Shown here: positions 12,817 to 48,826 of the stretch, one piece after another | Position numbering within the stretch: position 1 is the first letter of the stretch | Layout of the letters: every line of letters begins with the position of its first letter | Assembly (NCBI GenBank): GCA_017610225.1 | Contig: JAFCCM010000007.1 | Coordinates: forward strand, 1-48,826 | DNA from: Candidatus Aenigmatarchaeota archaeon | Lineage (GTDB): Archaea > Aenigmatarchaeota > Aenigmatarchaeia > CG10238-14 | Reading direction: 5' to 3' | DNA: 48,826 nucleotides | Notes under the pieces: generated by a model | Database searches by the model: none | Told to the model about the DNA's origin: nothing | What the model saw: the letters and a program-made list of their open reading frames with translations, nothing else | Position numbers and translations under genes: made by a program

Positions 12817-15800
12817 TGATTCAATTTAAATCTTTGGTTCAATATACTAGAGTAGTTGATGGAATTAGATTTCCACAAAATAATAAAGAACCTTTTTTGC
12901 TTGTATATTTTTCGGAAAATTCTAATCTTATTGAAGATTATCCAAAGTTGAATTTAAGATTAGTTGATTTAAAACATGTGGTCGTACCCTTGACAAAAAT
13001 TCCTAGAACTCGAATGACACCAGCATTTAAAAAGATATATCAACAATATAAATTATTACCTTATGCATCCAATATGGCATTCCCAAAAAATCGAAATATA
13101 TTATATGATTTATCTAATTACTTAAATGCAATTGATGTTATGTATAAACCAACAACATATAGGCAAAGAGCTGGATTTTTAATTAATAATGCTTTATTAA
13201 AAGCATTTGTTACATTCCCAAGTAATTATAAAAAAACATTAATCTATTCTATTGATATGACAAAAGATTTAAATTCATTTGTCAATAGAAAAGTATTTCC
13301 TCTTTTACGGCATATTAAAGATGGAGATTTATATTTTGATAATTTAATTTTAGCGATGGTTGGGGAAACAGATACCAGATATAGATTATTAATAAAAAAT
13401 GGGGAATTTAAATTTAGTAGACTTTTTCAGCTTTTAAAACGTATAAAACCGATTAGTTCTGAAGAGGAACAAGAAGAAGAGATCAAAAATGCTTCCCAGG
13501 TCGTTTACAGCACCGTTTCTAATAAGATAGATGTTAGTGGTAGGGGAACTGTAAAAAATGCCATTCACGACTATTTAAGAAAGGACAAAAAAACATTTGA
13601 AAAAGCTTCATCAAATGAACTATCATCTGATGAAATAAATAGGGCTACAATCGCTTCAATCTTATTTAAAGTCAATGGAAATTTGGAAAAATCAAAGAGA
13701 CTTGCGAAATCAATTCCATCTAAAAACTTAGCTATTGCAGTTAAAAAAATAAGTAGCCAATATAAAGACGAAATGTTAAAACCACAAGAAACTATAAATA
13801 CAAGTGAGATGATAATCAACAATCAATCTAATATTCCAAAAAGAGTTGATAACAAATCACCTGAGCATATTTTTAACAAACGACAAATAGATTTTCAAAC
13901 TAATCTTAGAAAAGATTTGATCAATGCATTTAAAGTTTTAGAGACTCAAGATATCCCATTGAAATTTAAATCTTTTAAAATGTCAGATTTACCAAGTAAA
14001 ATGGGAGAAATAAGAAAGTCTGATGTCGCTCTTATTACAGTAATCTTGGTAGATAAATTTGGCAATGAGCACATTATTCATCTTGAAATTCCAAAGATTG
14101 ATCCTAACACTGGAACCTTTAGAGTTAATGGTGAAAGAAAATGTTTAATAAATCAAATATCAATAAATCCAATTAGTTTTCCAAAAGAATTTGATTCTAA
14201 ATTTGAAAGCTCATATTCAACATTTCATATTTATAGTAAGAGAACTAAAACCAAACAATATCTAGAATCATATATGGGATCATTCCGTCTGCCATTTATT
14301 ATTTTATTATCTTACGCATTTGGATTTGAAAAAACATTAAAACAATATAAAATTAAACATACAATTACAGAAACAAAACCTTCTAAAGATAAACTATTCT
14401 GTAAAGTTCCATTATCATATATTGTATTTGAAGGTTTAGATACAAATCTTAAAAAAGAATTAGCTCAATCTTTTATACAAGCTAAAGTTATAAATTATAA
14501 AGTAGAACAAGAATTCGGTTCAAAAGAATATTTTAATGATTTAATAATTGCTATAACAGGCAGAGTAGATTCAACATATTTAATAACAAATAATGTTAAA
14601 TATATAGTAGACCCTATTGCTAAACAAGTGTTAGTTAATCAACAACTTCCTAGTAATTTGTCTGTTATTATGGAATATATGGCAACCAAAGCAGTCACGG
14701 GATTTGTGCAAGATAGAAATGATATAACAAATCAAAGAATAAGAAATTCTGAAATTCTAGTCCATCTAGCACAAAAACAAATTTTAGCAGCATATACAGA
14801 TTATAAAAATCAAGTATTGTCTGGTAATGAAGATGCCAAATTAACATTACAAGAAAATAAATTAATGAGTCAATTTATTAATTTAGAAATAGTTCAAAAT
14901 ATGGAATATGCAAATCCAGTTGAAGAGATGGCTACAATTACAAAAGTATCACCAGTTGGTAAAACAGTTGGAGGTATTCCTGATAAACAAGCTATTCAAT
15001 TAGATGCTAGAAATGTACACCCTTCATATTTTGGAAATATAGATCCATTAGATACAGCAGAAGGTGGAAATATTGGTATTACTCAACAGTTAACTGTTGA
15101 TGCATATATTACTTCTGCTAGAGGAATGTTTTCTCAAAAAGAAATTACCAATAAAGAAAACTCTGGAATGCTTTCAACTACAACAGCAATGATTCCATTC
15201 ATTGAAAATAATGAAGGTGCAAGAATCATAATGGCTGCCAATCAAGCTAAACAAATGCTTCCATTAAAAAATCCAGAAGCACCAATCATTCAATCTGGTT
15301 ATGAATCTACATTAACAAATGTTCTATCTGATGCTTTTATTAAACGATCACCTTGTAACGGGAAAGTAATAAATATAACAAAAGATTCTATCAATATATT
15401 ATGTCGAGATAATAAAAAACAACAGGTTGATATTACACCACAACATTTAAAATCTGGATCTGGTGTTGATACTTTAAGTGTTTTTACACCTCGAGTTAAG
15501 GAAGGACAAACTATTAAAACAAGACAAATCGTTGCAGAAGGTGGGTGTATGTCGGGTGGAAGTATATCTTTAGGACGAACTCTCTCTGCATGTTATATGG
15601 CGTATAAGGGATATAATTTTGAGGATGGTATTGTCATAAGTGAAACTGTTGTTCAAAATCAAAAGCTAACATCTCTTCATGGTATAGCTATAGAAGTAAC
15701 TGTTGAGGAAGGTGATAGAATAGTTAAACTTGCCGATATTGGACAAAAAACTAAAAAGGGAGATCCTCTATTTGTAAAAGCAATAGGAAGTCTTGAAGAA

Positions 15801-16913
15801 TTACTAGGTGGTACATTAGAAGAGGAAGAAGATGAAACAGCAGATATTTATGATGGAAAATATATCAAAAAAAGTCCGGGTGGGACTATAGTAGATATTG
15901 AAGTCTTTTCAAACTTTTCAGATGATCAATTTCCAGAATTAAAAACTCTTATTAATAGAACCAATAGAAGATATAAAAAACCATCAAAAGAAAAATTTAA
16001 AGATAGAGGAACTACTGTCAAAGGGATCTTAATTAAATTTAAGATTGAACAAGAGTTACATATTGGGGTTGGAGATAAATTATGTAATAGATATGGAAAT
16101 AAAGGAATAATCTCATTGATTGAAAAAGAAGAGCTTATGCCAAGAACTCCGTGGGGAGAAAGAATAGAAATTATCTTTAACCCACTGGGGGTTGTTAGTA
16201 GAATGAATATGGGGCAAATGTTTGAGCTTTATTGTGGGCTCATTTCAAAAACACTAGCTTCCAGAATTATAAAGAGTAAAAATAAAGCAGAAGTTGTAAA
16301 ATTATTTAGAATTGTATTAGGTAAATTGGATACTTCTCCTGGAAAACAATTCGCAAGTTCGTTTGTTAAAAATATAGAAAAATTAGGACCAAAACAATTT
16401 AAAACAATGGTAGATCAAATTAGAACAACTAAATCTGTTCCAATAATTATTCCTCCATTTAAAGCCCCCTCACATAAAGATATTGCAAATACTTTGAAAG
16501 TTCTTGGGTTAAAAACAGGTTATAAATTAAAGCTTCCAGAATATAATACAACAACTAAAAGTAATGTACCTTTTGGATATATTTATATGTCAAAATTAGA
16601 ACATATTGGAGCAAATAAAATACATTCAAGGTCAACTGGTCCAATGGTTGGTAAAACATCTCAACCAACTGGGGGCAAAAGAAAAGAGGGTGGTCAAAGG
16701 ATAGGTGAAGGTGACACATATGCTCTATTATCTTATAATTGTCCTACAGTTTTATCTGAATTATTAGGACCTCTTTCTGATGATGTTGCAACTAAAAAAG
16801 AGATAGAATCAGATATAATTCAAACAGGGTCAGCTGAGTTTAGAGAAACAAAAGTATCTCCGACAAAAGATTTATTAAATGCTTATTTTATAGCTTTAAT
16901 GTTGGGAAATTAA
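12816..16913 (+). CDS. Phage multisubunit RNA polymerase beta subunit, undivided
   Basis: This 1365-aa beta homologue has ATG overlapping the beta' stop (TAATG). Recognisable regions are GTFRVNGERKCLINQ near residue 434 (bacterial 'f.inG.ErV...Q'), NFEDGIVISE near 936, KFKDRGTTVKGI and GVGDKLCNRYGNKG near 1085 (active-site lysine region), LGVVSRMNMGQ, and the C-terminal GGKRKEGGQRIGEGD clamp/switch region near 1285. Length is close to E. coli beta (1342 aa). It pairs with the beta' encoded just upstream. The gene order beta'-beta is the reverse of bacterial rpoB-rpoC. No alpha or sigma homologue is recognisable in the window, in line with the alpha-less phage RNAPs. Confidence 0.95.
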   Translation: MIQFKSLVQYTRVVDGIRFPQNNKEPFLLVYFSENSNLIEDYPKLNLRLVDLKHVVVPLTKIPRTRMTPAFKKIYQQYKLLPYASNMAFPKNRNILYDLSNYLNAIDVMYKPTTYRQRAGFLINNALLKAFVTFPSNYKKTLIYSIDMTKDLNSFVNRKVFPLLRHIKDGDLYFDNLILAMVGETDTRYRLLIKNGEFKFSRLFQLLKRIKPISSEEEQEEEIKNASQVVYSTVSNKIDVSGRGTVKNAIHDYLRKDKKTFEKASSNELSSDEINRATIASILFKVNGNLEKSKRLAKSIPSKNLAIAVKKISSQYKDEMLKPQETINTSEMIINNQSNIPKRVDNKSPEHIFNKRQIDFQTNLRKDLINAFKVLETQDIPLKFKSFKMSDLPSKMGEIRKSDVALITVILVDKFGNEHIIHLEIPKIDPNTGTFRVNGERKCLINQISINPISFPKEFDSKFESSYSTFHIYSKRTKTKQYLESYMGSFRLPFIILLSYAFGFEKTLKQYKIKHTITETKPSKDKLFCKVPLSYIVFEGLDTNLKKELAQSFIQAKVINYKVEQEFGSKEYFNDLIIAITGRVDSTYLITNNVKYIVDPIAKQVLVNQQLPSNLSVIMEYMATKAVTGFVQDRNDITNQRIRNSEILVHLAQKQILAAYTDYKNQVLSGNEDAKLTLQENKLMSQFINLEIVQNMEYANPVEEMATITKVSPVGKTVGGIPDKQAIQLDARNVHPSYFGNIDPLDTAEGGNIGITQQLTVDAYITSARGMFSQKEITNKENSGMLSTTTAMIPFIENNEGARIIMAANQAKQMLPLKNPEAPIIQSGYESTLTNVLSDAFIKRSPCNGKVINITKDSINILCRDNKKQQVDITPQHLKSGSGVDTLSVFTPRVKEGQTIKTRQIVAEGGCMSGGSISLGRTLSACYMAYKGYNFEDGIVISETVVQNQKLTSLHGIAIEVTVEEGDRIVKLADIGQKTKKGDPLFVKAIGSLEELLGGTLEEEEDETADIYDGKYIKKSPGGTIVDIEVFSNFSDDQFPELKTLINRTNRRYKKPSKEKFKDRGTTVKGILIKFKIEQELHIGVGDKLCNRYGNKGIISLIEKEELMPRTPWGERIEIIFNPLGVVSRMNMGQMFELYCGLISKTLASRIIKSKNKAEVVKLFRIVLGKLDTSPGKQFASSFVKNIEKLGPKQFKTMVDQIRTTKSVPIIIPPFKAPSHKDIANTLKVLGLKTGYKLKLPEYNTTTKSNVPFGYIYMSKLEHIGANKIHSRSTGPMVGKTSQPTGGKRKEGGQRIGEGDTYALLSYNCPTVLSELLGPLSDDVATKKEIESDIIQTGSAEFRETKVSPTKDLLNAYFIALMLGN

Positions 16914-37983: not shown

Positions 37984-38676
37984 ATGAAAATAAAACAAGA
38001 TTTTGTTACCAACAGTTCCAGTACATCATTTGTTTTACATACAAAATGTACTGGATTTCTGCCTATTAGATATTTTCCTGGAAACGGAAGTAGTTACGCT
38101 GAACAAACAGAAGCAACACAAACCATGATGTATAACATATTTAAGGGAAGTAAATATAATATAAAATCTGGTTCATATTCATATAATTCTGCTTGGATGA
38201 TTGTAACTGATTCTGAATATACTCAAAATGATTATGATAGAGATCCTTTAGAATTAACTTTACATATGATTAATAACAATAAATGGATTGATAATGATGC
38301 AGAAGTAAAATGTGTAAATACAATATTAAAAATAGAAACCAAACCACACACTACAAATCATGACAAACCTATTAATAAGGAAATAGAAGATTTATTAAAA
38401 GTAATTATAAAGGGTTTAAATATTCCATTTTGTTCATTGGTTTACACATGTATCCCTAAAGATACTGGAAGTGGTGGATGGGATGGTGGAGATCCATCAG
38501 GTAAATATACAACAACTCCAGAACTTGCTATCCATGAAACAAAAGTTGGAAATATTTTTATTATAAATAATAAAATAACTGACATATTGACCGGACCAGA
38601 AGATGCTTTTCAAATGTTAACTAAGATTGAAGATGTATTTAATAAAGGAGAGATGATGGGGAGAATAGATGAATAA
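37984..38676 (+). CDS. Protein with DFVTNSSSTS leader (230 aa)
   Basis: An upstream TTG (37978) is in frame, but ATG 37984 is better placed behind TTAGGAG and gives MKIKQDFVTNSSSTSFV, matching the protein at 34378. After the shared leader it has a Gly/Ser/Tyr-rich region and 'PKDTGSGGWDGGDPSG'. No domain is recognised. Its last codons overlap the radical SAM gene, linking the two. Confidence 0.62.
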   Translation: MKIKQDFVTNSSSTSFVLHTKCTGFLPIRYFPGNGSSYAEQTEATQTMMYNIFKGSKYNIKSGSYSYNSAWMIVTDSEYTQNDYDRDPLELTLHMINNNKWIDNDAEVKCVNTILKIETKPHTTNHDKPINKEIEDLLKVIIKGLNIPFCSLVYTCIPKDTGSGGWDGGDPSGKYTTTPELAIHETKVGNIFIINNKITDILTGPEDAFQMLTKIEDVFNKGEMMGRIDE

Positions 38677-39691
38677 AATAAAAATAGTTAATTTGTTTAT
38701 AACTAGAAGATGTAATCTCAGATGTTCGTACTGTGGAATCGTAAGAAATTATAAAAATAAACCAACTATATATCCCGATATGAAACATTACTATGAAAAT
38801 GAAATGTCAACGGAATATGTAATAGAATTGTTGGGGAAATTTAAAGCTCATAATCCAGATATCTTTATAATTATATATGGGGGTGAACCAATACTAAGAA
38901 AAGATTTGCCTGATATTATAAACTTTTGTAACAAAGAAAATATCAATTATACAATCATTACAAATAATACTCCTGAGATTCAACCATTAATAGACCGTTT
39001 GTTTGAAAAAACAGGAGGAGATATACGAGGATTTACTTCATCAGTAGATCCTATATTCAATCAAAAAGATGGATCTGATCGAGTAAAGAAAAGTATTAGT
39101 GGTTTAACAAATCTTTTAAAACGTCAATATATAGTCAAAGATCTAGTAGCCGAAATTACAGTTATGCGTGAAAACATTCCATATCTTTATGAACTCATTA
39201 AAGAATTAACTGGATATGGTATTAATAGTGATATAACTTTTATTGATACTGCAAAAAATCCATATTATGATTTTTCAAATGTTACAGAACCATGGAAACT
39301 AGTTCATATATCTCCTGAATTGGCAAACCAATTTCAAATGATATATGATGATAAAAGTTTAAATATTCATATGAAAGAATTTTTACTACCAGAAATTTGG
39401 AATATATTACCATCAAATATGGACTGTGGTATTGAAAAAGATTTACATAATATTTCTGTTGATGCTGATGGCTCGATTAGATTATGTACTCGTATTAGAG
39501 GCTATCATACTCCAATATCTATTAATAAAGATAATCTATTTAATTCAAATATGGAAGTTAGTTATAAAACAAGAATGCATATTAGTAAAGATAAAAAACA
39601 ATTTTGTAAACTATGTAACCATACATGTTTACTTATGAGTAAGTACGGAGATAAGGTGGACGAGTTAGTCCATACAAAAATAAGAAGTTAA
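38669..39691 (+). CDS. Radical SAM enzyme with SPASM-like C-terminal cysteine cluster
   Basis: This 340-aa protein has the radical SAM cluster C-x3-C-x2-C (Cys15, Cys19, Cys22 in RRCNLRCSYC), 'YGGEPIL' for SAM binding, and a C-terminal set of cysteines: 'MDCGIEKD', 'GSIRLCTR' and 'FCKLCNHTC'. These could hold a second iron-sulfur cluster, as in SPASM/twitch enzymes that modify peptides. It is longer than QueE and has the extra cluster, so I do not assign it to deazaguanine synthesis. It overlaps the DFVTNSSSTS protein gene, a possible substrate. Confidence 0.8.
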   Translation: MNKIKIVNLFITRRCNLRCSYCGIVRNYKNKPTIYPDMKHYYENEMSTEYVIELLGKFKAHNPDIFIIIYGGEPILRKDLPDIINFCNKENINYTIITNNTPEIQPLIDRLFEKTGGDIRGFTSSVDPIFNQKDGSDRVKKSISGLTNLLKRQYIVKDLVAEITVMRENIPYLYELIKELTGYGINSDITFIDTAKNPYYDFSNVTEPWKLVHISPELANQFQMIYDDKSLNIHMKEFLLPEIWNILPSNMDCGIEKDLHNISVDADGSIRLCTRIRGYHTPISINKDNLFNSNMEVSYKTRMHISKDKKQFCKLCNHTCLLMSKYGDKVDELVHTKIRS

Positions 39692-39704: not shown

Positions 39705-40025
39705 ATGGCAGTAGATTCAAGTATTATAGATAATGCAATAGAATTCTGGAATATTATTAGGGATGAAAAAGTTGTAACCGTAAAGTTTGAAAAAAGATCT
39801 GATGGTTCCACAAGGATAATGAAATGTACTTTAGATTTTACACTAATTCCTAAAAAAGATTATCCAGATAAAAATATTAATATTGCAAAGATTTTAAAAT
39901 TAATGCAAAAAAGTAAAATTATTCATGTCTACGATTTAGAGAAAAAAGGATGGAGATCAGTTCCATTTGATAATGTTGAATATCTAAAAACAGTAGATAA
40001 AACATATAAAATTAAAGCAGACTAA
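39705..40025 (+). CDS. Small SH3-like barrel protein (DUF2693-like, 106 aa)
   Basis: ATG 39705 follows ACGGAGGAAATATT. Strands 'VTVKFEKRSDGSTRIMKCTLDFTLIP' and 'IIHVYDLEKKGWRSVPFDNVEYLK' resemble the phage DUF2693-type small barrel that ends in 'WRSF'. The role is unknown. It opens the gene run that leads into the ubiquitin-like locus. Confidence 0.5.
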   Translation: MAVDSSIIDNAIEFWNIIRDEKVVTVKFEKRSDGSTRIMKCTLDFTLIPKKDYPDKNINIAKILKLMQKSKIIHVYDLEKKGWRSVPFDNVEYLKTVDKTYKIKAD

Positions 40026-40037
40026 AGGAGGTCTTTA

Positions 40038-40409
40038 ATGACAATATTGGGAGATTTAATTAAAGAAATTGGTGAAAATGAGTTGACATTACAAGTTAAA
40101 AAGATATGTCAGGAAATATACAATGAAGAAATTAAAAAATGTAAACACCCAGAAAGATTACCAACTGGACCAAATACTTTTTTATCTATTGAAATTCCTG
40201 GTATTAAAAGTAATCAAGTTTCTTATTTAACTTTAGAGAGAGAAAGTGAAGAACATTATTTAATAGTTTTATGGAGTTTATATGAGAAATTTTATCTTGA
40301 CAAAACTAAAAATTTAAAAAGAGTAAAAGTTTGGGAAATAAATGAAAACAAAGCAGAGAAAATTTTAATTAACTTCGCAAAAACCGTAAAATTACTAAGA
40401 GGTGAATAA
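40038..40409 (+). CDS. Hypothetical protein upstream of the Ub-like locus (123 aa)
   Basis: ATG 40038 follows AAAGGAGGTCTTTA, an optimal ribosome site. The product is a mixed alpha/beta basic protein with 'HPERLPTGPNTFLSIEIPGIKSNQVSYLTLE'. No family is recognised. It abuts the E2-B-like gene with no gap, so it may belong to the same functional unit. Confidence 0.55.
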   Translation: MTILGDLIKEIGENELTLQVKKICQEIYNEEIKKCKHPERLPTGPNTFLSIEIPGIKSNQVSYLTLERESEEHYLIVLWSLYEKFYLDKTKNLKRVKVWEINENKAEKILINFAKTVKLLRGE

Positions 40410-42965
40410 ATGATAAAACAAGAAATAATTATTGATGAATGGAACACCAGTTACTTTGATACTTTATATGATGATACCAATAAAAGAAAAGGTACATTAG
40501 ATAGAAAAAAACAAATACCAACCAATCTATTTATTAGTAAATTGAAGAATATTCAAAAAATAAAATCCATACCCAATATTATACTCCCACCAAATTGTAG
40601 ATATACTGCAAATACAGATAATTATAAATTATTTATAATTGAAGAACCACCTCAACTAAGAACAATATATCTTAATTATGATATGTCGGGAGTTATTGCT
40701 GGTTTAAAAGCATCTGGAGATCTTAAAAAATTTGGTTACGAAAATTGGTTTAAAGAAAATAAAAAACCATACCAATTTTATTTAGCATTTCCATATATAA
40801 TTTATATTATAGTATTAAATTCAAACAATCAGTATATAAAACTAAGAACTTTTACAAGGGTTACTTCTCTTAGTAGTCATGGAGATTATCTATGCAAAAT
40901 TCCTTTAATGAATATTAATAACACTCAATCAATTTGTATGGGACCTTTTTCAAAATTGATTGACGATAAAAATCCAACAACTGCTATTGGAAGTATTATA
41001 AAAACATTTTGGGAAAACATATTTAATCAAGATTATATCTATAATGTACAAGCATATAACGATATACCATTTGTTTGTGATTATTTAACATGGCAATATT
41101 ATAGTCAACAAGATCCAATGTTTATATATAATGTTGAATGGATCCCTTATAAAACTATTACTTATGAAATTAATAAATTTAAGAATGGATACACAACTCT
41201 TCGTGATGAAATTACTCTAAAAGGTTTAGCTAACAAAATTTTCTACAAATCATCACCAACATCTTTAGTAGATAGAAAAACAAATCTAAAGGTATATGAT
41301 AATGTAACAGATTCTATTAACATTGATAGAATTCCAATATTTGTAAATGACTCTTTTATGTTAAAAAATAAAAGATGTTTCGTAAGATCATTTATGTCTT
41401 CAAGACAAACTTCTGATATTACTCATGTAAAACTCCAATATTCTGATAAAAATATTAGAATATATAGATTAACAAACCAATTCAAAGATAAATTAAGAAA
41501 AAATATTATAGAAGAAAGGTTTATTCATTCAACAACTTTACCAGATGGTACAATAGTTAAACAAGGGTGTATAATAGAATCTACTAATGTCTATGGTCAT
41601 ACAATTTATAATAAAGTTGGTTATATGAGATATGGGATTGATGGAAAAATTGAAGTTCGTATTAAATCTTCATTAACTGCATTAGAAGATATGAAAGATA
41701 TTAAAGTCATTGATATACAAAATATTAATGTTAATGGAATCCAATTAGTAAAAGGTAAAATTTATTCAGTTTTATTCCAATATAGAAATACAACAGCTCC
41801 TATTAAACTTCTTAGAAAATTAAAAATTAATGATATAGATATTTCTAGTAATGGTAAAATAATAGTATCTTTTGAAAGGGTAGACAATTTTAATAAAATA
41901 CCAATAAATTTAGATGATTTATATAAAAGACTTATAAATTCAAAAAAATTCAAAAAAATATCATCTATATGTAGAATAGGTACAACCATGATTTATAATG
42001 ACTCTATAAAAATTCATGCTGATATGATAAATTATTTATTTATGGAAAATACCTCTACTAATCTTCCCGAATATAATCAAACCATGGAGACTATATTTAA
42101 AGATAAAGACCATTTATTCATTGAAAGTTTTGATATGAACCTGTCGTTTAAATTGGGTGATAAAGTTGTTGTATCCGATTGGTTAAATCCAGGAGAGATG
42201 TTAAAAGTTAAAACTATAATGGGTTTTAGAACCATAGATAATGCAAAACTCAATATATTATTAGAAGATCAACATGGAAATAAATCTGAGCATACTTATC
42301 TAAGAAGAGCACCAAATAATTTTACAGTTAATGTGGGTACGTTAAGGCATATTGAAAAAGAATATAAAGGAATAACTTCTGGAACTAAAATTAAAGCAAA
42401 CAAAGCCAGGTTGTCGAATTTTCCAATGAAAGATACAAATATAATTATTGGTTTCTTAACAGATACTGGTGGTAATATTCCATTAGTATTATGTTCAAAT
42501 GGTGCAACCCTTTGGGCTGATGACTTAATAGAAAATTTTAATTTAATTACTATGAGTAATAAAAAATGGAAATCTCTTAAACATACTCCAATTATAGATC
42601 AAAGAACTTTTAAATTTCATCCTGGAGATATGACTACAATTCCATATAGCGATAATCACCTTTTACAAAATTTATTAACTTTACAATATGCGGGAGATAA
42701 AATGATTTGTCAATATTTATCTGAAGAACAGAAATGTATAAGTCCAGAATATAATGGTTATTTTGGCACAGAAATAAAATCTATAGTAAATAGAATAGGA
42801 TTTTTAAATCCTAGATATTCACAAAAACAATTACAAGAACATAAACTTATTACTGCATATCCAAACTTTCATGGTATGTATAATTTTAACCCAGATGTTC
42901 AGATGAAATATCATGTGGATGAAAGGAGAGTTATCAATGTTTCCGATTTACCTATACGAAGGTAA
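40410..42965 (+). CDS. Large protein with prokaryotic E2-B-like (UBC-fold) domain, 851 aa
   Basis: Residues ~70-215 read like the prokaryotic E2 family B. 'IEEPPQLRTIYL' opens it, 'YQFYLAFPYIIYIIVL' gives paired strands, and 'YLCKIPLMNINNTQSICMGPF' matches the 'LyklPlpNv...g.vC.G' signature, with Cys176 as candidate catalytic cysteine. A helix 'AIGSIIKTFWENIF' follows. The remaining ~630 residues are unlike any family I know; they contain small beta-barrel-like segments (e.g. 'FKLGDKVVVSDWLNPGEMLKV'). Known E2-B proteins (PRTRC protein B) are ~250 aa, so this is a large fusion. It overlaps the JAB gene and would take the Ubl from E1. The domain call is moderate. Confidence 0.6.
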   Translation: MIKQEIIIDEWNTSYFDTLYDDTNKRKGTLDRKKQIPTNLFISKLKNIQKIKSIPNIILPPNCRYTANTDNYKLFIIEEPPQLRTIYLNYDMSGVIAGLKASGDLKKFGYENWFKENKKPYQFYLAFPYIIYIIVLNSNNQYIKLRTFTRVTSLSSHGDYLCKIPLMNINNTQSICMGPFSKLIDDKNPTTAIGSIIKTFWENIFNQDYIYNVQAYNDIPFVCDYLTWQYYSQQDPMFIYNVEWIPYKTITYEINKFKNGYTTLRDEITLKGLANKIFYKSSPTSLVDRKTNLKVYDNVTDSINIDRIPIFVNDSFMLKNKRCFVRSFMSSRQTSDITHVKLQYSDKNIRIYRLTNQFKDKLRKNIIEERFIHSTTLPDGTIVKQGCIIESTNVYGHTIYNKVGYMRYGIDGKIEVRIKSSLTALEDMKDIKVIDIQNINVNGIQLVKGKIYSVLFQYRNTTAPIKLLRKLKINDIDISSNGKIIVSFERVDNFNKIPINLDDLYKRLINSKKFKKISSICRIGTTMIYNDSIKIHADMINYLFMENTSTNLPEYNQTMETIFKDKDHLFIESFDMNLSFKLGDKVVVSDWLNPGEMLKVKTIMGFRTIDNAKLNILLEDQHGNKSEHTYLRRAPNNFTVNVGTLRHIEKEYKGITSGTKIKANKARLSNFPMKDTNIIIGFLTDTGGNIPLVLCSNGATLWADDLIENFNLITMSNKKWKSLKHTPIIDQRTFKFHPGDMTTIPYSDNHLLQNLLTLQYAGDKMICQYLSEEQKCISPEYNGYFGTEIKSIVNRIGFLNPRYSQKQLQEHKLITAYPNFHGMYNFNPDVQMKYHVDERRVINVSDLPIRR

Positions 42966-44229
42966 GGAATTACCAGAAGATGAAATATGTTATTTAATTG
43001 CAAAACAAGGTATTTTTCTAAAAAAGAAAGTAGGACTGGTTGAAAGTTTAACAAAGGTTGATAAAATATCAATTCTTAATGAATTAAAACCATGGGCTAA
43101 AATGAGCTTGCCCAAAATATCTGGCCCTCAAATGGGTAAAATAATATCATTTTTTAAAGCAGTTGTGAATGAATTTAGTGGGGAAGCAAATGTTTTATTG
43201 TATTATAATGAAACAGAAAATAAATATATCACATCTGTTCCTAAACAAGAAGTATCTGCAGCTGCTTGTGATTATGAACAAGGCACCAGTATTCCTGGTT
43301 ATGATCTTGTAGGAACAGTTCACAGCCATGCTAGAATGTCTGCTTTCCATTCTGGTACTGATGATAAAGATGAGAAACATTTTGACGGACTTCATATTAC
43401 AATTGGTAACTTAACTGATGACTATTCTAGTATTTCAGCATCAATTGTCGTTAATGGATTTCGGGTTATTGTAGATCCATGTGATTATATCAATAAATGT
43501 GTAGCGGTTAAAATTCCTCAAAAATCCTTTACACCATATGCAGCATCAAAGGTATATAGATATATTAATGGAAAGATGGTTCAAACTGAATCAGACCAAA
43601 TCACAACTCCTGTAGTTAAAAGATATGATGAAAGATATAATATTCAAGTTTCTGAAAAACAAAAACAATTCAATAAAAAATGGTTAAAGAAAGTTTCTAG
43701 AAGAGTATATACTCCTAGTACATACACTCGTAACCAGACTTATATGGATCATGAATTCTTTGACTTTTTTGGAAGTGGATATGATTCTCTCACAGAGTGG
43801 ATGGTTAGTAAAGGGAAAGATGGTAAAACTAAGAATATGTTAAATGTTGGACCTATTAAAGATAGTATTGAATTTTCTAAACATGAAGATCTTGATGATT
43901 ATAACCCATGTATAAATTGTGTATTTAAAGATTCTAAATTAGAATATGCATATGACATTCTACAAACTGGTATAGATCCAGGAGAAGATTTACCTGAAAC
44001 TAATAATTTTGAACCAGAAACAGATCTAATGGCAAAAGATGATGGATTAGCAGCTTATGATCCCAAACAAGAATCTGAACAAACCCCTGAGGATTTAGTA
44101 GAGGAACAATTGAGGAGTCAAGCTTATTTGCATGAAAATAATAATGAGTTGATTCCTACGCCAAAGAGCAATCCAACAACTCCATTCTCAAGAGTTAAAA
44201 AATTTTTTAAAGGAACTATAAGAAGATGA
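42937..44229 (+). CDS. JAMM/JAB-domain isopeptidase (deubiquitinase-like)
   Basis: The frame opens at ATG 42913, but ATG 42937 (MFPIYLYEG) has AAAGGAGAGTTATCA ahead of it, giving 430 aa. The JAMM zinc motif H-x-H-x7-S-x2-D is complete (His129, His131, Ser139, Asp142, in VHSHARMSAFHSGTD). It is followed by 'GLHITIGN' and 'NGFRVIVDP', typical of prokaryotic JABs. The C-terminal ~200 residues are a charged, probably disordered tail ending in a basic stretch. JAB enzymes cleave Ub-like proteins from targets. The Ubl encoded nearby already ends at its last Gly, so deconjugation is more likely than precursor processing. It overlaps the E1 gene by four bases. Confidence 0.88.
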   Translation: MFPIYLYEGKELPEDEICYLIAKQGIFLKKKVGLVESLTKVDKISILNELKPWAKMSLPKISGPQMGKIISFFKAVVNEFSGEANVLLYYNETENKYITSVPKQEVSAAACDYEQGTSIPGYDLVGTVHSHARMSAFHSGTDDKDEKHFDGLHITIGNLTDDYSSISASIVVNGFRVIVDPCDYINKCVAVKIPQKSFTPYAASKVYRYINGKMVQTESDQITTPVVKRYDERYNIQVSEKQKQFNKKWLKKVSRRVYTPSTYTRNQTYMDHEFFDFFGSGYDSLTEWMVSKGKDGKTKNMLNVGPIKDSIEFSKHEDLDDYNPCINCVFKDSKLEYAYDILQTGIDPGEDLPETNNFEPETDLMAKDDGLAAYDPKQESEQTPEDLVEEQLRSQAYLHENNNELIPTPKSNPTTPFSRVKKFFKGTIRR

Positions 44230-44903
44230 ATATTAAAATAATTGGATTAGGTGGTATTGGAAGTATTTTAATTGAAAGACTATGTAGATTTTTAAATTAT
44301 TCTCAAGCTGATACTCACTTTAATATAACCTTAATTGACGGTGATGAATACGAAGATAAAAATCTTGAACGTCAAGAGTTTACAAGGTTAGGTGATAAAG
44401 CTGAAATTAAAGCAAATGATCTTAAAATTAAATATTTAAATCTCAATATAGATTACATTATAGATTATATTAATACAGATACAATATCTAGAGGTATAAG
44501 TGAGAAAGATATAGTCTTTCTTTGTGTTGATAATCACAAAACTCGAATGGTTGTATCTAATTATTGCAAAACATTAAATGATGTTATCTTATTTTCTGGA
44601 GGGAATGAACTTACAGATGGTAATGTACAAATCTTTATCAGAAAGGGAGGTGTTGATTTAACACCAGATTTATGTGCATATCATCCTGAGATTGCAAATC
44701 CATCTGACAAATCTCCAGATGAAATGTCTTGCGAAGAATTATCAAAGTCAGAACCACAACTGTACTTTACTAATTTAAGTGTGGCCACTATTATGTGTTG
44801 GGCATATTACAACGTTGTTGTCCAGCAAAATATCAAGGCATCTGAAATTTACTTTGACATGTCAATTATGTCTGTTGATGCAAAAACTCGAATCGTGAAA
44901 TGA
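44226..44903 (+). CDS. E1-like Ubl-activating enzyme (ThiF/PRTRC-type)
   Basis: This 225-aa Rossmann-fold protein has GLGGIGS (7-13), 'LIDGDEYEDKNLERQEF' with the Arg finger, 'DKAEIKA' with the ATP-contacting Lys region, and 'VFLCVDNHKTR'. Near the C-terminus 'DEMSCEELSKSEPQLYFTNLSVAT' aligns well with the catalytic-Cys region of PRTRC-system ThiF proteins (Cys169). It would adenylate the C-terminal Gly of the Ubl encoded next and pass it to an E2. It starts inside the JAB stop (ATGA). Confidence 0.87.
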   Translation: MNIKIIGLGGIGSILIERLCRFLNYSQADTHFNITLIDGDEYEDKNLERQEFTRLGDKAEIKANDLKIKYLNLNIDYIIDYINTDTISRGISEKDIVFLCVDNHKTRMVVSNYCKTLNDVILFSGGNELTDGNVQIFIRKGGVDLTPDLCAYHPEIANPSDKSPDEMSCEELSKSEPQLYFTNLSVATIMCWAYYNVVVQQNIKASEIYFDMSIMSVDAKTRIVK

Positions 44904-44939
44904 TTTCACAAAATCAAAACAAAGGAGAAATAAAGAATT

Positions 44940-45422
44940 ATGCCGATTTACTTAAGAGAAGAACTCGAAACAATGAACGTAAAAAATGAATTAAAACCAA
45001 TGGCAGTAAAGTTGGGTCTTACTGGATATTCCAAAAAGACTAAAGCTGTTGTTATCGACGCAATCATGGAAAGCCAAGGACCAAAAACAAGTCCGAAAAA
45101 AGCTACAGCATCAATTGCTCCTGCAGCAGCTGCTAAAGCTATGAACGCTATTGAGTTTTGTGCTACATCTGTTCTTACAAAACCTTCAGCGAAAAAAGGT
45201 GACAAATGCTCTACCACTATTCGTGTAACCAGTGGAGCTTCATCTGGTAACTTTCCGGTTGCTGGCCGTACAGTTGCTGAAGTTAGTGAATTTCTTAGAG
45301 AAGTTCTTAATATTGAAAAAATGTCCCCAGGTTTAGTAAATGGAAAAAATGTTGAAGGAACTTATACCCTTAAAGATAAGGATGAATTAGAGTTTCTGAA
45401 ACCAGCTGGATCAAAGGGATAG
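44940..45422 (+). CDS. Ubiquitin-like protein with N-terminal SAP/HeH-like domain
   Basis: This 160-aa protein starts at ATG 44940 behind AAAGGAGAAATAAAGAATT. Residues ~12-47 (VKNELKPMAVKLGLTGYSKK then KAVVIDAIM) match the SAP/HeH/Rho-N helix-extended-helix pattern that binds DNA or RNA. An Ala/Pro/Ser linker follows (~50-70). Residues ~90-160 fit a beta-grasp Ubl: TTIRVTSG, GRTVAEVSEFLREVL, a GLVNGKNVEGTYTLKDKDELEFL turn and strand, and the very end PAGSKG. PRTRC-C/Prok_Ub proteins end in a similar GTKG. The terminal Gly is exposed and ready for activation. The codons are less A/T-biased than those of neighbours, hinting at high expression. Confidence 0.72.
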   Translation: MPIYLREELETMNVKNELKPMAVKLGLTGYSKKTKAVVIDAIMESQGPKTSPKKATASIAPAAAAKAMNAIEFCATSVLTKPSAKKGDKCSTTIRVTSGASSGNFPVAGRTVAEVSEFLREVLNIEKMSPGLVNGKNVEGTYTLKDKDELEFLKPAGSKG

Positions 45423-45439
45423 AAAGCGGAGTTAAATAC

Positions 45440-45469
45440 ATTGCTGGGGAGCGAAAGTTCCTCAGCAAT
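45440..45469 (+). promoter_or_regulatory. GNRA-capped RNA hairpin between Ubl and second E1-like gene
   Basis: 13 bp pair without mismatch (two G-U wobbles) around a GAAA tetraloop at 45453-45456. No T-run follows, so it is not a classical terminator. An alternative pairing joins 45435-45442 to 45488-45495 and would cover the ATG at 45489. It may stabilise the upstream Ubl message or limit translation of the next gene. Confidence 0.55.
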
Positions 45470-45488
45470 ATCCAAGGACTGTAACTAA

Positions 45489-46424
45489 ATGTATTATATG
45501 AACTCAAAAAAGCACAAGATAGATCTATGTTATAAAACTGTATGTATAATTGGTTTAGGTAGTTTGGGAAGCTTTTTATACAAACATCTTTCTTATAATG
45601 AAGATATTAAGAAATTAATATTGATTGATCCACAAACAGTAGAAAAAAATAATTTAGATAGCTCATTCTTCAGAAATAATGATATTGGAAAACCAAAAGT
45701 TGAATGTTTGCTAAATAGAGTAGATCCATTATTTACAAGAACACAAATATTCCAAAGTGAATATAATGAAGGAACAACAAAATTACCTCCATGTGATTTA
45801 GTTATAGATTGTCGAGATTTTATATGTAGCAGAAAACAAGAAATTGATGTTAAATTTTATATTGATGAAAGAAGTTTGGTCATTGATTGCAGACAGTTTG
45901 TAAATAGAAGATCTCACTCGGGTAGTTATTTTATGGTTTTAAAGAAAAGTGAAATTAGGGAAGCAGCATTTATAGCTTATAAATTAATTTCAACCCCAAA
46001 AATTTTAAATAAAATGATAAACAATAAAGTCCTTCAATCTTTAAATATTGATGAAACAATATCTAATATATTCCAAGATATTAAATTAAAAAATTCTAAT
46101 GATTTAGTATATGAAACCCACAAAGGATTAGAAAAAATTCATTCATTTGAAGATTATATTAATACAACTGTACAAGAAGCACAGAAAAAAGATATTGATG
46201 TTTTTGTTGGTGAAGAACATCTTTGGAAAAAATTTAGTTTTATGTCATTTACAACTTCCCCAGAATATGCTGTAATTCCAAAAGGGAGTGACACAACAAA
46301 AGTTCTAGAGATAATAGGAGATCTTATATCAAAGCAAAAAGAAAATTTGGAATACTCAATGAGCTTATCTTCAAAAGGGGGAATGATTAGTGTTTTACTC
46401 ATTAGAGAAACAGGCGCCGCATGA
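45489..46424 (+). CDS. Second E1/ThiF-like protein, degenerate
   Basis: ATG 45489 is chosen, 10 nt after AAGGA (ATG 45498 is the alternative). The 311-aa product has the Rossmann glycine motif GLGSLGS, 'LILIDPQTVEKNNLDSSFF', 'IGKPKVECLLNRV' with the conserved Lys, and 'LVIDCRDF'. The Arg-Gln pair normally following the Asn (N..RQ) is replaced by DSS, and there is no clear catalytic Cys region in the C-terminal half. It therefore looks like an inactive or specialised E1 half, perhaps a partner for the active E1 at 44226. Its 3' end overlaps the E2-like gene. Confidence 0.72.
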   Translation: MYYMNSKKHKIDLCYKTVCIIGLGSLGSFLYKHLSYNEDIKKLILIDPQTVEKNNLDSSFFRNNDIGKPKVECLLNRVDPLFTRTQIFQSEYNEGTTKLPPCDLVIDCRDFICSRKQEIDVKFYIDERSLVIDCRQFVNRRSHSGSYFMVLKKSEIREAAFIAYKLISTPKILNKMINNKVLQSLNIDETISNIFQDIKLKNSNDLVYETHKGLEKIHSFEDYINTTVQEAQKKDIDVFVGEEHLWKKFSFMSFTTSPEYAVIPKGSDTTKVLEIIGDLISKQKENLEYSMSLSSKGGMISVLLIRETGAA

Positions 46425-46866
46425 TATAGAAGTCGCCTTTAAAAAAATGACTTCCTGGATTAAAAATAATAAAATTAAACATGGTCGAGGAGAAATATCT
46501 TTATTCCCTTTAGAAATCCATCCAACACATATGTTTAAAGAAAACAAATTATTTAAAATTGAAGATTGTAATAACAATTTTAAAATCAATGGGTTAATAT
46601 TTATAACGGAAAATAATAAAGTTCAATCTATAAAAATTATGAATGGCTCCCATCCTAATATGGACCCAGAAACAAGAGAATATTGTATAGATGAACAATT
46701 AAAAAATAAAGAATTTGATATGAATTATCTTTTTACAATCATATCATTACTTGAAACTTGGCACACTAATAATTGTTATAGAAAACCAAATCCTAAACAT
46801 TATAAAATAATAGAAATACCAAAAATTGGTGGTATAACCAATGATAGACTTAGGAGAAAAACTTAA
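46390..46866 (+). CDS. E2-like (UBC-fold) conjugating enzyme with HPN motif
   Basis: The start is GTG 46390, ~9 nt after AGGGGGA; the gene overlaps the second E1-like gene by 35 nt. The 158-aa product has 'INGLIFITENNKVQSIKIMNGSHPN' followed by 'EYCIDEQL'. This is the classic E2 order: beta-strands, His-Pro-Asn (88-90), then the active-site Cys (Cys99) in C-I/L-D. The helix 'MNYLFTIISLLETW' matches the 'll.si..ll' helix after the E2 active site. Length matches canonical E2s (~150 aa). It should take the activated Ubl from E1 by thioester transfer. Confidence 0.75.
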   Translation: MFYSLEKQAPHDIEVAFKKMTSWIKNNKIKHGRGEISLFPLEIHPTHMFKENKLFKIEDCNNNFKINGLIFITENNKVQSIKIMNGSHPNMDPETREYCIDEQLKNKEFDMNYLFTIISLLETWHTNNCYRKPNPKHYKIIEIPKIGGITNDRLRRKT

Positions 46867-47792
46867 TGAAACTTTGTGATTATGGTTGTGGACAGGAAGC
46901 CAAACATCAGTTTAAGAATGGTAAATGGTGTTGTAGTGAAAATTGGCATTCTTGTCCATTTATTCGTAATAAAAATAGTGAAATAATGAAAGGAAAAAAT
47001 ACAGGGCCTCAATCTGAAGAACACAAAAGAAAAAGAAGTAAATCAATGAAAGGAAAAAATACAGACCCTCTCTCTGAGGAGCATAAAAAGAAAATAAGTG
47101 AATCACATAAAGATAAACCTCTTTCTGAAGAAACAAAAAGAAAAATAAGTAAATCACATAAAGATAAACCTCTTACTGAAGAACATAAAAAAAATATAAG
47201 TAATTCAAATAAATTTACATTAAAAGATTATAAAGAAAAATATCCATTTTTCTGTAGTATTGAAGAATTAAGAGAAAATAAAAATGGGGAAATTCAAGCC
47301 CATTGTAAGAATCATGAATGTGAAAATTCAAAAGAGAAAGGTGGTTGGTTTAATCTTACAATAAAACAAATAACAGATCGAAAAAATAATTTAGAAAATG
47401 AGGGTGAAGATAAATCTTATTTCTATTGTTCTCAACACTGTAAAGATACATGTATATTATTTGGTTTGAGCACTGACCCATATAAAAATACTAATAAACC
47501 ATATACTTCTGGTGAACTTGATATATTTAATAAATTAGTTTTAAAACGAGATAATGAAATCTGCTATTACTGTGGTGACCATCATGCAACCATAGTTCAT
47601 CATTTAAAACCACAAAAACTTGAACCATTCTTTGCACTTGACCCAGACTATGCTATATCAGTATGCAAAAAATGTCACTACAAATATGGCCATCCAACAG
47701 GTAGCCCTCATTCAACTGGTAATTTAGCAAAAATAGTTTGTAGTGTGGAATCACAAAAATTTTTAAATCAAAAAAATAAGAAAGGAAAATAA
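46866..47792 (+). CDS. HNH homing endonuclease with NUMOD3 repeats, paralogue of the one at 5481
   Basis: ATG 46866 overlaps the E2-like stop (TAATG). The 308-aa product has the same zinc-finger N-terminus (LCDYGCG...GKWCCS), then four short NUMOD3 repeats of 17-20 residues (core LSEEHKKKISESHK), the same CxxC middle region, and an HNH C-terminus nearly identical to the first copy. DNA identity is high over the C-terminal ~285 nt. The two genes differ chiefly in the central repeats. It is inserted between the E2-like gene and the second beta' region. Confidence 0.83.
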   Translation: MKLCDYGCGQEAKHQFKNGKWCCSENWHSCPFIRNKNSEIMKGKNTGPQSEEHKRKRSKSMKGKNTDPLSEEHKKKISESHKDKPLSEETKRKISKSHKDKPLTEEHKKNISNSNKFTLKDYKEKYPFFCSIEELRENKNGEIQAHCKNHECENSKEKGGWFNLTIKQITDRKNNLENEGEDKSYFYCSQHCKDTCILFGLSTDPYKNTNKPYTSGELDIFNKLVLKRDNEICYYCGDHHATIVHHLKPQKLEPFFALDPDYAISVCKKCHYKYGHPTGSPHSTGNLAKIVCSVESQKFLNQKNKKGK

Positions 47793-48002
47793 ATGAGCTC
47801 AATGACTTCATTTGAAAAACATCTCAATACTATCATAATGGAAAAAATAGAAAACTATGGAATGATTGTTACAAAGGAAGATGCTAAAGAAATTGTAAAA
47901 GCAATTGTTCCCGAACTTAATGAATTAGTATCTGAAATAATTAAAGAACATTTTCGTAGTTTGGCGAAACATATTTTAGAAAAATTTAACTCAAAGGAGT
48001 AA
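47793..48002 (+). CDS. Hypothetical protein (69 aa)
   Basis: ATG 47793 lies directly after the HNH stop, behind AAAGGAAAATAA. The product is a helical, charged protein (FEKHLNTIIMEKIENYG ... LNELVSEIIKEHF) that may form a coiled coil. It precedes the second beta' gene by two bases, so it may be an accessory factor of that polymerase. No family is recognised. Confidence 0.5.
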   Translation: MSSMTSFEKHLNTIIMEKIENYGMIVTKEDAKEIVKAIVPELNELVSEIIKEHFRSLAKHILEKFNSKE

Positions 48003-48004
48003 GT

Positions 48005-48826
48005 ATGCCAAAAATACTAAACTATACAGAATTCTGTGAAGATTTACCTGAAGTTACGTCGATAAAAATCATTGGAAAAAAATATTTTCATCCACAGGGT
48101 TTATTTTCTGAACAAATCTTCGGACCTTTAAAAAACTATACATGTCAATGTGGAACATATTATGGTGTTTCTAAATCTGGTGGCCAGTGTGATCTATGTA
48201 AAGTAGACATAGTAAATAGTAATGTTCGTAGAACAAGATTTGCAAAAATAACATTGCCAATGCCTGTAGTTAATCCGCTATTCTATGATCTACTTGTACA
48301 TATCGGTGGTAAGACTTTAAAAACTGCAATTGATGATTTAATGAAAATGGAAAAAAGTGTATTATATCAAGACGGTGATGATATGGTCGTAACTGTTAAT
48401 CCCGAATATATTCCAAAGGGAACAACAACCTGGGAAAAAACAGATGCTATATTAAAACTTGTACATTTTATTGCAGAACGTGAAGCTGGTTATGAAGTTG
48501 AAGAATGGCAATTAGTTTTAGATAACATTGATAATCTTTTAATTGATCATGTTATTGTTCTCCCACCAGAGTTAAGACCAACTATGTTAGCAGGTGGAAA
48601 AAATAAACAATTAATGGATAAAATAAATAGATACTATACTCAAATTTTAACTAAAAAAGAAATCATACGAGATACAATTCTTAATATTCATAGAGATAAG
48701 GATTTGTATTATACTTATTTTAAACAAATTCAAAAAGATGTTAATGAATTATATACTAGAATATTAGAAAAAATGGCAAAAAAAGAAGGATTAATAAGAG
48801 GAAATATTCTTGGAAAAAGAATTGAT
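48005..48826 (+). CDS. Second RNA polymerase beta' paralogue, N-terminal part (runs off window)
   Basis: ATG 48005 follows AAAGGAGTAAGT. The 274 codons seen are open to the end. 'FHPQGLFSEQIFGPLKNY' is followed by the complete zinc-binding site Cys47/Cys49/Cys62/Cys65 (C-x-C-x12-C-x2-C) and 'NSNVRRTRFAKITLPMPV', matching bacterial beta' closely. The last residues, KKEGLIRGNILGKRID, align with KKRGLIRGSLLGKRVD in the first beta'. The catalytic NADFDGD region lies beyond the window. It is clearly a different gene from the beta' at 9808, and indicates a second phage RNA polymerase. Confidence 0.92.
   Translation, partial: MPKILNYTEFCEDLPEVTSIKIIGKKYFHPQGLFSEQIFGPLKNYTCQCGTYYGVSKSGGQCDLCKVDIVNSNVRRTRFAKITLPMPVVNPLFYDLLVHIGGKTLKTAIDDLMKMEKSVLYQDGDDMVVTVNPEYIPKGTTTWEKTDAILKLVHFIAEREAGYEVEEWQLVLDNIDNLLIDHVIVLPPELRPTMLAGGKNKQLMDKINRYYTQILTKKEIIRDTILNIHRDKDLYYTYFKQIQKDVNELYTRILEKMAKKEGLIRGNILGKRID

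What the first reader, a model, noticed from the sequence alone, without database searches (positions are those of the whole stretch)
40410..46866. Complete phage-encoded ubiquitin-like conjugation locus
Six consecutive, mostly overlapping genes read as E2-B-like fusion, JAMM isopeptidase, E1 with Arg finger and candidate Cys169, Ubl ending in GSKG, a second E1-like protein, and a small E2 with HPN...YCID. All the chemistry for attaching and removing a protein tag is present in a phage genome beside replication and transcription genes. Components resemble PRTRC-type prokaryotic Ub systems (Prok_Ub, Prok-E2_B, JAB, ThiF). The doubled E1/E2 complement and the Ubl fusion are not the usual layout. 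The tag may mark host proteins, phage replication proteins or DNA-bound factors.
Basis: partly seen in the sequence, partly recalled or inferred. Interest (0 to 1): 0.95.

Follow-up and report, generated by a model that had tools for sequence, protein, structure and literature searches.

The report
Phage-encoded ubiquitin-like protein-tagging cluster
Six neighbouring genes in this phage contig resemble the parts of a ubiquitin-style kit (an activating enzyme, two conjugating enzymes, a tag protein, a tag-removing enzyme and a second activator-like protein) and are predicted to attach a small protein tag to other proteins and take it off again, in a layout that related phage contigs share but the bacterial relatives examined here did not show.

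Summary
Six genes (40410-46866) encode a PRTRC-B-like E2, a JAMM isopeptidase, a ThiF-type E1, a ubiquitin-like protein (Ubl), a second ThiF-fold protein (E1b) and a small E2-like protein. Of 52 related viral loci with enough flank, 45 hold all six plus a downstream phage RNA polymerase gene, in one order. Key catalytic residues are near-invariant across viral and bacterial relatives. The Ubl tail (AGxKG, sometimes extended) equals that of a plasmid PRTRC protein C. The core resembles the bacterial PRTRC cassette, but curated cut-offs are not reached and PRTRC E, F and ParB were not among the proteins scanned, so I call it PRTRC-related. Unusual here: a Rho_N-type domain on the Ubl, the small E2 (motif strong, fold support modest), and E1b, which lacks the E1's Arg-Gln pair and ends G-(A/G/S)-(A/S) in 70 of 73 full-length relatives. 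Most likely a reversible Ubl-conjugation system kept as core genes of a phage clade; targets unknown, possibly phage nucleic-acid machinery. No conjugation was measured. New variant of a known kind.

The parts
40410..42965 (+). Long E2-like protein (851 aa): N-terminal PRTRC-B / Prok-E2_D-like domain with Cys176 (codon 40935-40937), long C-terminal extension of unknown fold
   Evidence: Prok-E2_D in 12 of 16 members at E<=0.1, best 3.6e-6, window member 16.2 bits under the cut-off of 25; Cys176 and Asn168 in 64 of 64 distinct rows with a residue, 4 gaps
42913..44229 (+). JAMM/JAB metallo-isopeptidase (438 aa; start more likely 42937) with E91, H137-S-H139, S147, D150 and a C-terminal CxxC
   Evidence: Prok-JAB 3.3e-6; PRTRC_A 3.5e-10; the five residues E, H, H, S, D each in 72 of 72 distinct rows with a residue, 1 gap; CxxC nearly invariant
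44226..44903 (+). E1 (ThiF family, 225 aa), Arg49-Gln50, Asp102, candidate thioester Cys169 (codon 44730-44732)
   Evidence: ThiF 8.3e-18; PRTRC_ThiF 1.2e-12; of 75 distinct rows D38 75, N46 73, R49 74, Q50 71, K62 60, D102 75, C169 73 with 2 gaps
44940..45422 (+). Ubiquitin-like protein (160 aa): N-terminal Rho_N/HeH-type domain plus beta-grasp domain ending AGSKG
   Evidence: Rho_N 12 of 17, TGS 12 of 17, ThiS 9 of 17 members; K159 and G160 in 68 of 68 distinct rows with a residue; tail matches a plasmid PRTRC_C
45489..46424 (+). E1b (311 aa): ThiF-fold domain about 11-202 without the Arg-Gln pair, plus C-terminal domain about 205-311 ending TGAA
46390..46866 (+). Small E2-like protein (158 aa) with HPN motif (88-90) and Cys99 (codon 46684-46686)
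38669..39691 (+). Radical SAM protein, constant upstream neighbour; membership in the system uncertain
   Evidence: Radical_SAM 6e-14; present in 44 of 44 E1b-positive viral loci with 7.5 kb upstream
39705..40025 (+). Small conserved protein of unknown function (g397), constant neighbour
   Evidence: 44 of 44 such loci; no NCBIfam hit
40038..40409 (+). Small conserved protein of unknown function (g400)
   Evidence: 39 of 44 such loci
47793..48002 (+). Small conserved downstream protein (g478)
   Evidence: 47 of 55 E1b-positive viral loci with 3.5 kb downstream
48005..48826 (+). Start of a multisubunit phage RNA polymerase subunit gene (runs off the contig), constant downstream neighbour
   Evidence: PHROG RNA polymerase beta subunit 4.3e-16; the full gene in L001 matches phage genes several of which are annotated RNAP beta or beta-prime; present in 55 of 55 such loci

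Best explanation
The cluster is most likely a phage-borne, PRTRC-related ubiquitin-like conjugation and deconjugation system that would tag proteins with the Ubl and remove the tag again. Proposed steps, all inferred from conserved residues and family knowledge: the JAMM enzyme trims Ubl precursors after the AGxKG tail (needed only where an extension exists; the window's own Ubl already ends in KG) and later cleaves conjugates; the E1 (44226-44903) adenylates the Ubl C-terminal glycine and takes it on Cys169; it hands the Ubl to Cys176 of the long E2 and/or Cys99 of the small E2; an E2 places it on a lysine of the target. E1b probably acts as a partner of the E1 or as the docking platform of the small E2 encoded beside it (its C-terminal domain being either an E2-recruiting module or a second modifier). 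The Rho_N-type domain on the Ubl and the fixed position between recombination-nuclease and RNA polymerase genes suggest, weakly, that the marked proteins sit on nucleic acid, such as the phage's own replication or transcription machinery (my estimate for this target class about 0.35).
For: Family matches for E1, JAMM, E2 and Ubl. Key residues conserved in nearly every distinct sequence. Small E2: HPN and Cys in 46-48 of 48 distinct rows and E2 enzymes as best fold and sequence matches. Synteny: of 52 viral loci with room, E2 in 51, JAMM 51, Ubl 50, RNAP 48, E1b 47, small E2 45; the 45 that hold all seven have one order. Ubl tail conserved with variable residues after it: of 47 distinct E1b-positive loci 28 end at KG, 15 carry +Cys, 4 a longer or other extension; of 21 E1b-negative 8 end there, 11 are extended, 2 lack the searched tail. 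A cultured Bacillus phage, KLEB27-3, encodes four head-to-tail Prok_Ub repeats each ending AGVKG, near PRTRC-like E2, JAMM and E1 genes, which fits cleavage after KG. Purifying selection on all six against two close relatives: dN/dS 0.09-0.10 (E1b) to 0.47-0.51 (long E2); neighbours for comparison SbcC 0.25-0.27, radical SAM 0.11-0.14.
Confidence: 0.75

Rival explanations
1. A peptide- or small-molecule-modifying (RiPP-like) pathway: the ThiF-like proteins and the neighbouring radical SAM enzyme would modify a peptide, as MccB and SPASM maturases do.
For: E1b's nearest PDB sequences include MccB and MoeB; the radical SAM gene is present upstream in 44 of 44 loci and its best NCBIfam hit is the PapB ranthipeptide maturase, 58.6 bits against a cut-off of 340.
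Against: Does not explain a JAMM isopeptidase, two E2-like proteins with conserved cysteines, and a beta-grasp protein with a conserved KG end. No precursor peptide was identified, though I did not search for one.
Confidence: 0.08
2. A sulfur-carrier system: the Ubl would be thiocarboxylated by the E1, as ThiS or MoaD, to supply sulfur for tRNA, nucleotide or cofactor modification.
For: Ubl matches ThiS and TGS profiles; E1 matches ThiF and MoeB models.
Against: E2-type proteins with conserved cysteines and a JAMM with its full catalytic set fit conjugation better; the Ubl tail matches PRTRC_C. No rhodanese domain among the 9 proteins scanned with Pfam.
Confidence: 0.1
3. The system tags host proteins (RNA polymerase, nucleases or defence proteins) for host takeover or counter-defence, instead of phage proteins.
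For: Analogous bacterial systems act in phage-host conflict (PMC10097602, passages); the long E2 evolves fastest of the six (dN/dS 0.47-0.51), as a target-facing part might.
Against: The cluster keeps one position in the clade and Ubl, E1 and long E2 identities follow those of the RNA polymerase gene (Spearman 0.77-0.79), more like a core function than a patchy conflict gene; not decisive.
Confidence: 0.3
4. A decaying remnant of a bacterial defence or plasmid cassette without function in the phage.
For: E1b lacks the Arg-Gln pair; PRTRC scores are below curated cut-offs.
Against: dN/dS below 1 for all six genes, conserved catalytic residues and one order in the 45 loci with all parts.
Confidence: 0.03

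Closest known systems
PRTRC system (ParB-related, ThiF-related cassette; bacterial plasmids), which I equate with operon type 6d of Iyer et al. 2006 (PMC1779556; section 14 and passages read; the paper does not use the name in what I read)
   Same: E2, JAMM and E1 genes in the order B-A-ThiF and a small Ubl with AGxKG end (A. aromaticum plasmid); JAMM and E1 profile matches
   Different: No ParB, E or F among the proteins scanned; Ubl gene after the E1 instead of before the E2; Ubl carries a Rho_N-type domain; long E2 of 851 aa without an invariant downstream histidine; extra E1b and small E2; scores under the family cut-offs
E2-JAMM-E1-Ubl sets in bacterial MAG contigs (L066-L081), among them Methylomirabilota
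   Same: E1 38-48% identical to the window's in these 16 loci, 44-47% in Methylomirabilota; same gene order in L074; same Ubl tail pattern
   Different: No small-E2 match, and E1b only as one weak hit in L079 about 6.5 kb from its E1 (little flank after the E1 in L070, L072, L077 and L080); Ubl mostly short, without the Rho_N-length N-terminus; an AAA+ gene precedes the set in L074 (Pfam) and, by eye, L071, where no E2 match was found
Bacillus phage vB_BauM_KLEB27-3 gp194-gp199
   Same: Phage with PRTRC-like E1, JAMM, E2 and a Prok_Ub protein
   Different: Ubl is a four-repeat polyubiquitin-like precursor; no E1b or small-E2 match in the 18.6-kb stretch
CBASS Cap2/Cap3, Bil and Bub pathways
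   Different: No CD-NTase among the proteins scanned, no E1-E2 fusion, single-domain E1; lies in phage contigs at a conserved position, not in a bacterial defence operon

Membership tests
PRTRC system | Proteins reach NCBIfam cut-offs of PRTRC_A and PRTRC_ThiF | tested here: not met
   39.7 of 101.8 bits and 47.7 of 144.75 bits
PRTRC system | E2 (B), JAMM (A) and ThiF genes adjacent in this order | tested here: met
   Window order equals the order B-A-ThiF on one PRTRC plasmid
PRTRC system | Small Ubl of the PRTRC_C family ending AGxKG | tested here: inconclusive
   Tail met: EbN1 PRTRC_C ends RRAAGTKG, phage Ubl KPAGSKG; but profile match only E 0.0028 over 6 proteins and no PRTRC_C hit for the window Ubl
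PRTRC system | ParB-related protein, PRTRC E and F in the cassette | tested here: not met
   None among the 8 window proteins scanned with NCBIfam; phage neighbour profiles do not match PRTRC E or F. ParB models were not run on all window ORFs
PRTRC system | E2 with absolutely conserved downstream histidine (PMC1779556 section 14) | tested here: not met
   No histidine among invariant or nearly invariant columns of the 16-member alignment; Asn206 (62 of 64) and Asp208 (57 of 64) are conserved downstream
E1 / ThiF superfamily (44226-44903) | ThiF-family domain with ATP-site D, N, R-Q, D and a candidate thioester Cys | tested here: met
   thioester formation itself not tested
UBC/E2 (46390-46866) | HPN motif followed by catalytic-position Cys | tested here: met
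   46-48 of 48 distinct rows; catalysis not tested
UBC/E2 (46390-46866) | UBC fold | tested here: inconclusive
   Order of helices and strands fits; E2s are the best matches but weak; no Pfam E2 hit
JAMM isopeptidase (42913-44229) | Distal E and HxH...S..D motif | tested here: met
   72 of 72 distinct rows with a residue; Prok-JAB over cut-off, 27.4 against 25
Active E1 (E1b, 45489-46424) | Arg-Gln pair and conserved thioester Cys | tested here: not met
   0 of 48 rows have Arg at 58 or Gln at 59, the positions aligned to the E1 pair; Cys108 (47 of 48) lies in the stretch aligned to MoeB DCTD, Cys134 40 of 48; no other Cys column above half
Beta-grasp domain at E1b C-terminus | Beta-beta-alpha-beta-beta order and homology or fold match to a Ubl | tested here: inconclusive
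   Strand/helix order fits; hhalign to the Ubl finds nothing; no convincing PDB or Pfam hit; domain not folded alone
Type II CBASS (Cap2/Cap3) | CD-NTase plus E1-E2 fusion protein (recalled; partly PMC10097602) | tested here: not met
   No CD-NTase among 8 proteins scanned with PADLOC, only ThiF-part matches to E1-E2 models
Bil | BilA with two Ubl domains and a two-lobed E1 (PMC11354881 passages) | tested here: not met
   E1 is one 225-aa ThiF domain and the Ubl has one beta-grasp match plus Rho_N; the BilB motif was not tested
Bub | Operon-defining components | not tested
   Defining papers not held

The most novel reading that the evidence does not exclude
A phage clade runs a two-tag system: besides the Rho_N-Ubl ending in KG, the pseudo-E1 E1b carries its own built-in modifier, and its C-terminal G-(A/G/S)-A carboxylate is activated by the neighbouring E1 and conjugated through the small E2, so that an activating-enzyme-like protein is itself the tag, on proteins of the phage replication or transcription apparatus.
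Probability: 0.22. Interest if true: 0.9.

Novelty: new variant of a known kind. Interest (0 to 1): 0.74.

Why it matters
Ubiquitin-like conjugation in bacteria is known mainly from anti-phage defence and, by sequence, from PRTRC-type cassettes whose function I did not find described. A conserved, constrained set at a fixed place in the genomes of a phage clade would turn the usual direction round and give PRTRC-type chemistry a setting in which function can be tested. E1b, a ThiF-fold protein with a conserved G-small-Ala end, has relatives that bear only generic ThiF-type names in the search made. KLEB27-3, a phage isolated on a Bacillus strain, offers a cultured relative of the core set.

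Tried and rejected

Literature: search listings (20 of 83 shown; 6; 10; 14; 20 of 24; 20 of 27; 0 for KLEB27-3; 20 of 206; 15 of 297) show no title on a phage-encoded E1-E2-Ubl-JAMM set; the 224-jumbo-phage survey PMC7824862 holds none of the terms E1-like, E2-like, JAB, Ubl, ThiF (term search). Passages only were seen of PMC7824862, PMC9674854, PMC7466150, PMC10097602, PMC13373217, PMC12687455 and PMC11354881; of PMC1779556 section 14 and passages. The library lacks most subscription papers, so an earlier report cannot be excluded.

Rows: L014 and L015 scored no small E2; by eye the frame after E1b holds HMN/HLN and a later Cys, not counted in the tallies, and they are absent from the E2s table. 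L064 has only a distant E1 match and counts as a miss in the 52. The 62 viral loci include near-identical copies (for example L010/L011/L018, L043/L054, L060/L061, L025/L037, L029/L030/L032); counts by locus (and the neighbour counts) include copies, residue counts are by distinct row. Alignments left out duplicates and fragments: with the window, 16, 26, 17, 17, 16, 17, 54, 48 and 38 sequences. The notebook says no Cys is conserved near the C-terminal half of E1b; searches give the counts used here.
Full report
What is there. Six plus-strand genes lie head to tail at 40410-46866. Profiles identify the second to fifth as JAMM (Prok-JAB 3.3e-6), E1 (ThiF 8.3e-18), Ubl (weak ThiS, Rho_N at the N-terminus) and a second ThiF protein, E1b (6.4e-12); NCBIfam places the JAMM and E1 closest to PRTRC_A and PRTRC_ThiF, far under the curated cut-offs. 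The first gene is a weak Prok-E2_D match by itself, but 12 of 16 family members hit that model at E<=0.1, best 3.6e-6. The sixth has no Pfam hit.

The Ubl. Of 17 members Rho_N hits 12 (best 3.8e-13), TGS 12 and ThiS 9. The tail is AGxKG (first position A, sometimes S, G or T) with variable residues beyond it in part of the family. A plasmid PRTRC_C ends the same way. In the cultured Bacillus phage KLEB27-3, gp199 has four Prok_Ub copies (5e-27 for the protein; over the PRTRC_C cut-off, 61 against 45.95 bits), each ending AGVKG, the first three followed directly by the next copy, near genes for a Prok-E2_D-like protein, a JAMM and a PRTRC_ThiF-like E1. This resembles eukaryotic polyubiquitin genes (recalled) and supports cleavage after KG.

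Conservation and context. One scan with the E1 gave 21 viral loci, a second with its alignment 62, and the genome collection 19. Of 52 viral loci with 4 kb before and 6.5 kb after the E1: E2 51, JAMM 51, Ubl 50, RNAP gene 48, E1b 47, small E2 45; the 45 with all seven genes have one order. In 44 of 44 E1b-positive viral loci with 7.5 kb upstream the radical SAM gene and g397 are present, and in 55 of 55 with 3.5 kb downstream the RNAP gene. Contigs with E1b reach 277 kb (L054), and a 340-kb contig (L062) has only the core, so these are probably large phages; the window itself is 48.8 kb and its genome size and host are unknown. It also carries tail fibre, RNAP, topoisomerase II and SbcCD-like genes. 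Among 44 distinct loci the pairwise identity of E1, Ubl and long E2 follows that of the RNAP gene (Spearman 0.77-0.79; JAMM 0.53, E1b 0.48, SbcC 0.53, radical SAM 0.47), compatible with shared descent. dN/dS against L001 and L065 is 0.09-0.10 for E1b, 0.14-0.20 Ubl, 0.18 E1, 0.25-0.32 small E2, 0.29-0.32 JAMM, 0.47-0.51 long E2.

Origin. Bacterial MAG contigs (L066-L081) carry JAMM and/or E1 and Ubl relatives, most with an E2 match, and no small-E2 match and no adjacent E1b match; in L074 an AAA+ gene comes first. The L074 E2 is known only by its match to the phage E2 profile, having no Prok-E2_D hit. The phage set looks like this core plus a Rho_N-type domain on the Ubl, an enlarged E2, E1b and the small E2; the direction of that change is my inference, no tree was built. 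It is PRTRC-related; I do not file it as a PRTRC member since cut-offs, the extra cassette proteins and the E2 histidine were tested and not met.

How it probably works, and what is not shown. See the explanation section: conjugation through E1, one or both E2s, with JAMM for maturation and reversal. Shown: families, conserved residues, fold models, synteny, selection. Inferred: every reaction, the role of E1b, the targets.

Noticed in passing
L022:3718-4425 (Bacillus phage KLEB27-3 gp199, OM634661.1): Annotated hypothetical, but four tandem Prok_Ub repeats each ending AGVKG: a phage polyubiquitin-like precursor near PRTRC-like E2, JAMM and E1 genes; the only match among 50,697 phage records at E<=0.01.
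   Followed up: partly
window 46866-47792: NUMOD3/HNH homing endonuclease gene sits directly after the small E2; in L001 the small E2 and g478 genes overlap with no gene between, so likely an insertion.
   Followed up: partly
L049:10649-11275: The Ubl reading frame continues past the KG tail into 67 residues that look like NUMOD3 repeats (by eye).
   Followed up: no
L015:10727-11953: Ubl-like sequence and E1b appear in one reading frame without the KG tail; could be a natural fusion or a sequence fault.
   Followed up: no
L074:6717-8492 and L071:7130-9100: In these Methylomirabilota contigs an AAA+ ATPase gene (L074 by Pfam; L071 by eye) precedes the JAMM-E1-Ubl set, a candidate unfoldase partner.
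   Followed up: partly
L086 (Sporosarcina psychrophila plasmid pSP10-266k): JAMM-like and ThiF genes directly before dnaX and delta-prime DNA polymerase III genes, another neighbourhood of PRTRC-like parts with replication genes.
   Followed up: no
window 9808-16913 and 48005-48826: Multisubunit RNA polymerase genes at two places, as in phages with virion and non-virion polymerases (recalled).
   Followed up: no
L065 (contig DAOVGR010000079.1): A close relative (E1 93% identical) is filed in a Thermoplasmatales archaeon MAG; host link or misbinning not resolved.
   Followed up: no
Phage records H75-H81: Vibrio phages D69, D181 and D148, Burkholderia phage BgVeeders33, Salmonella phage Arash and Acinetobacter phage ME3 hold stretches related to the KLEB27-3 E1; their neighbourhoods were not looked at.
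   Followed up: no
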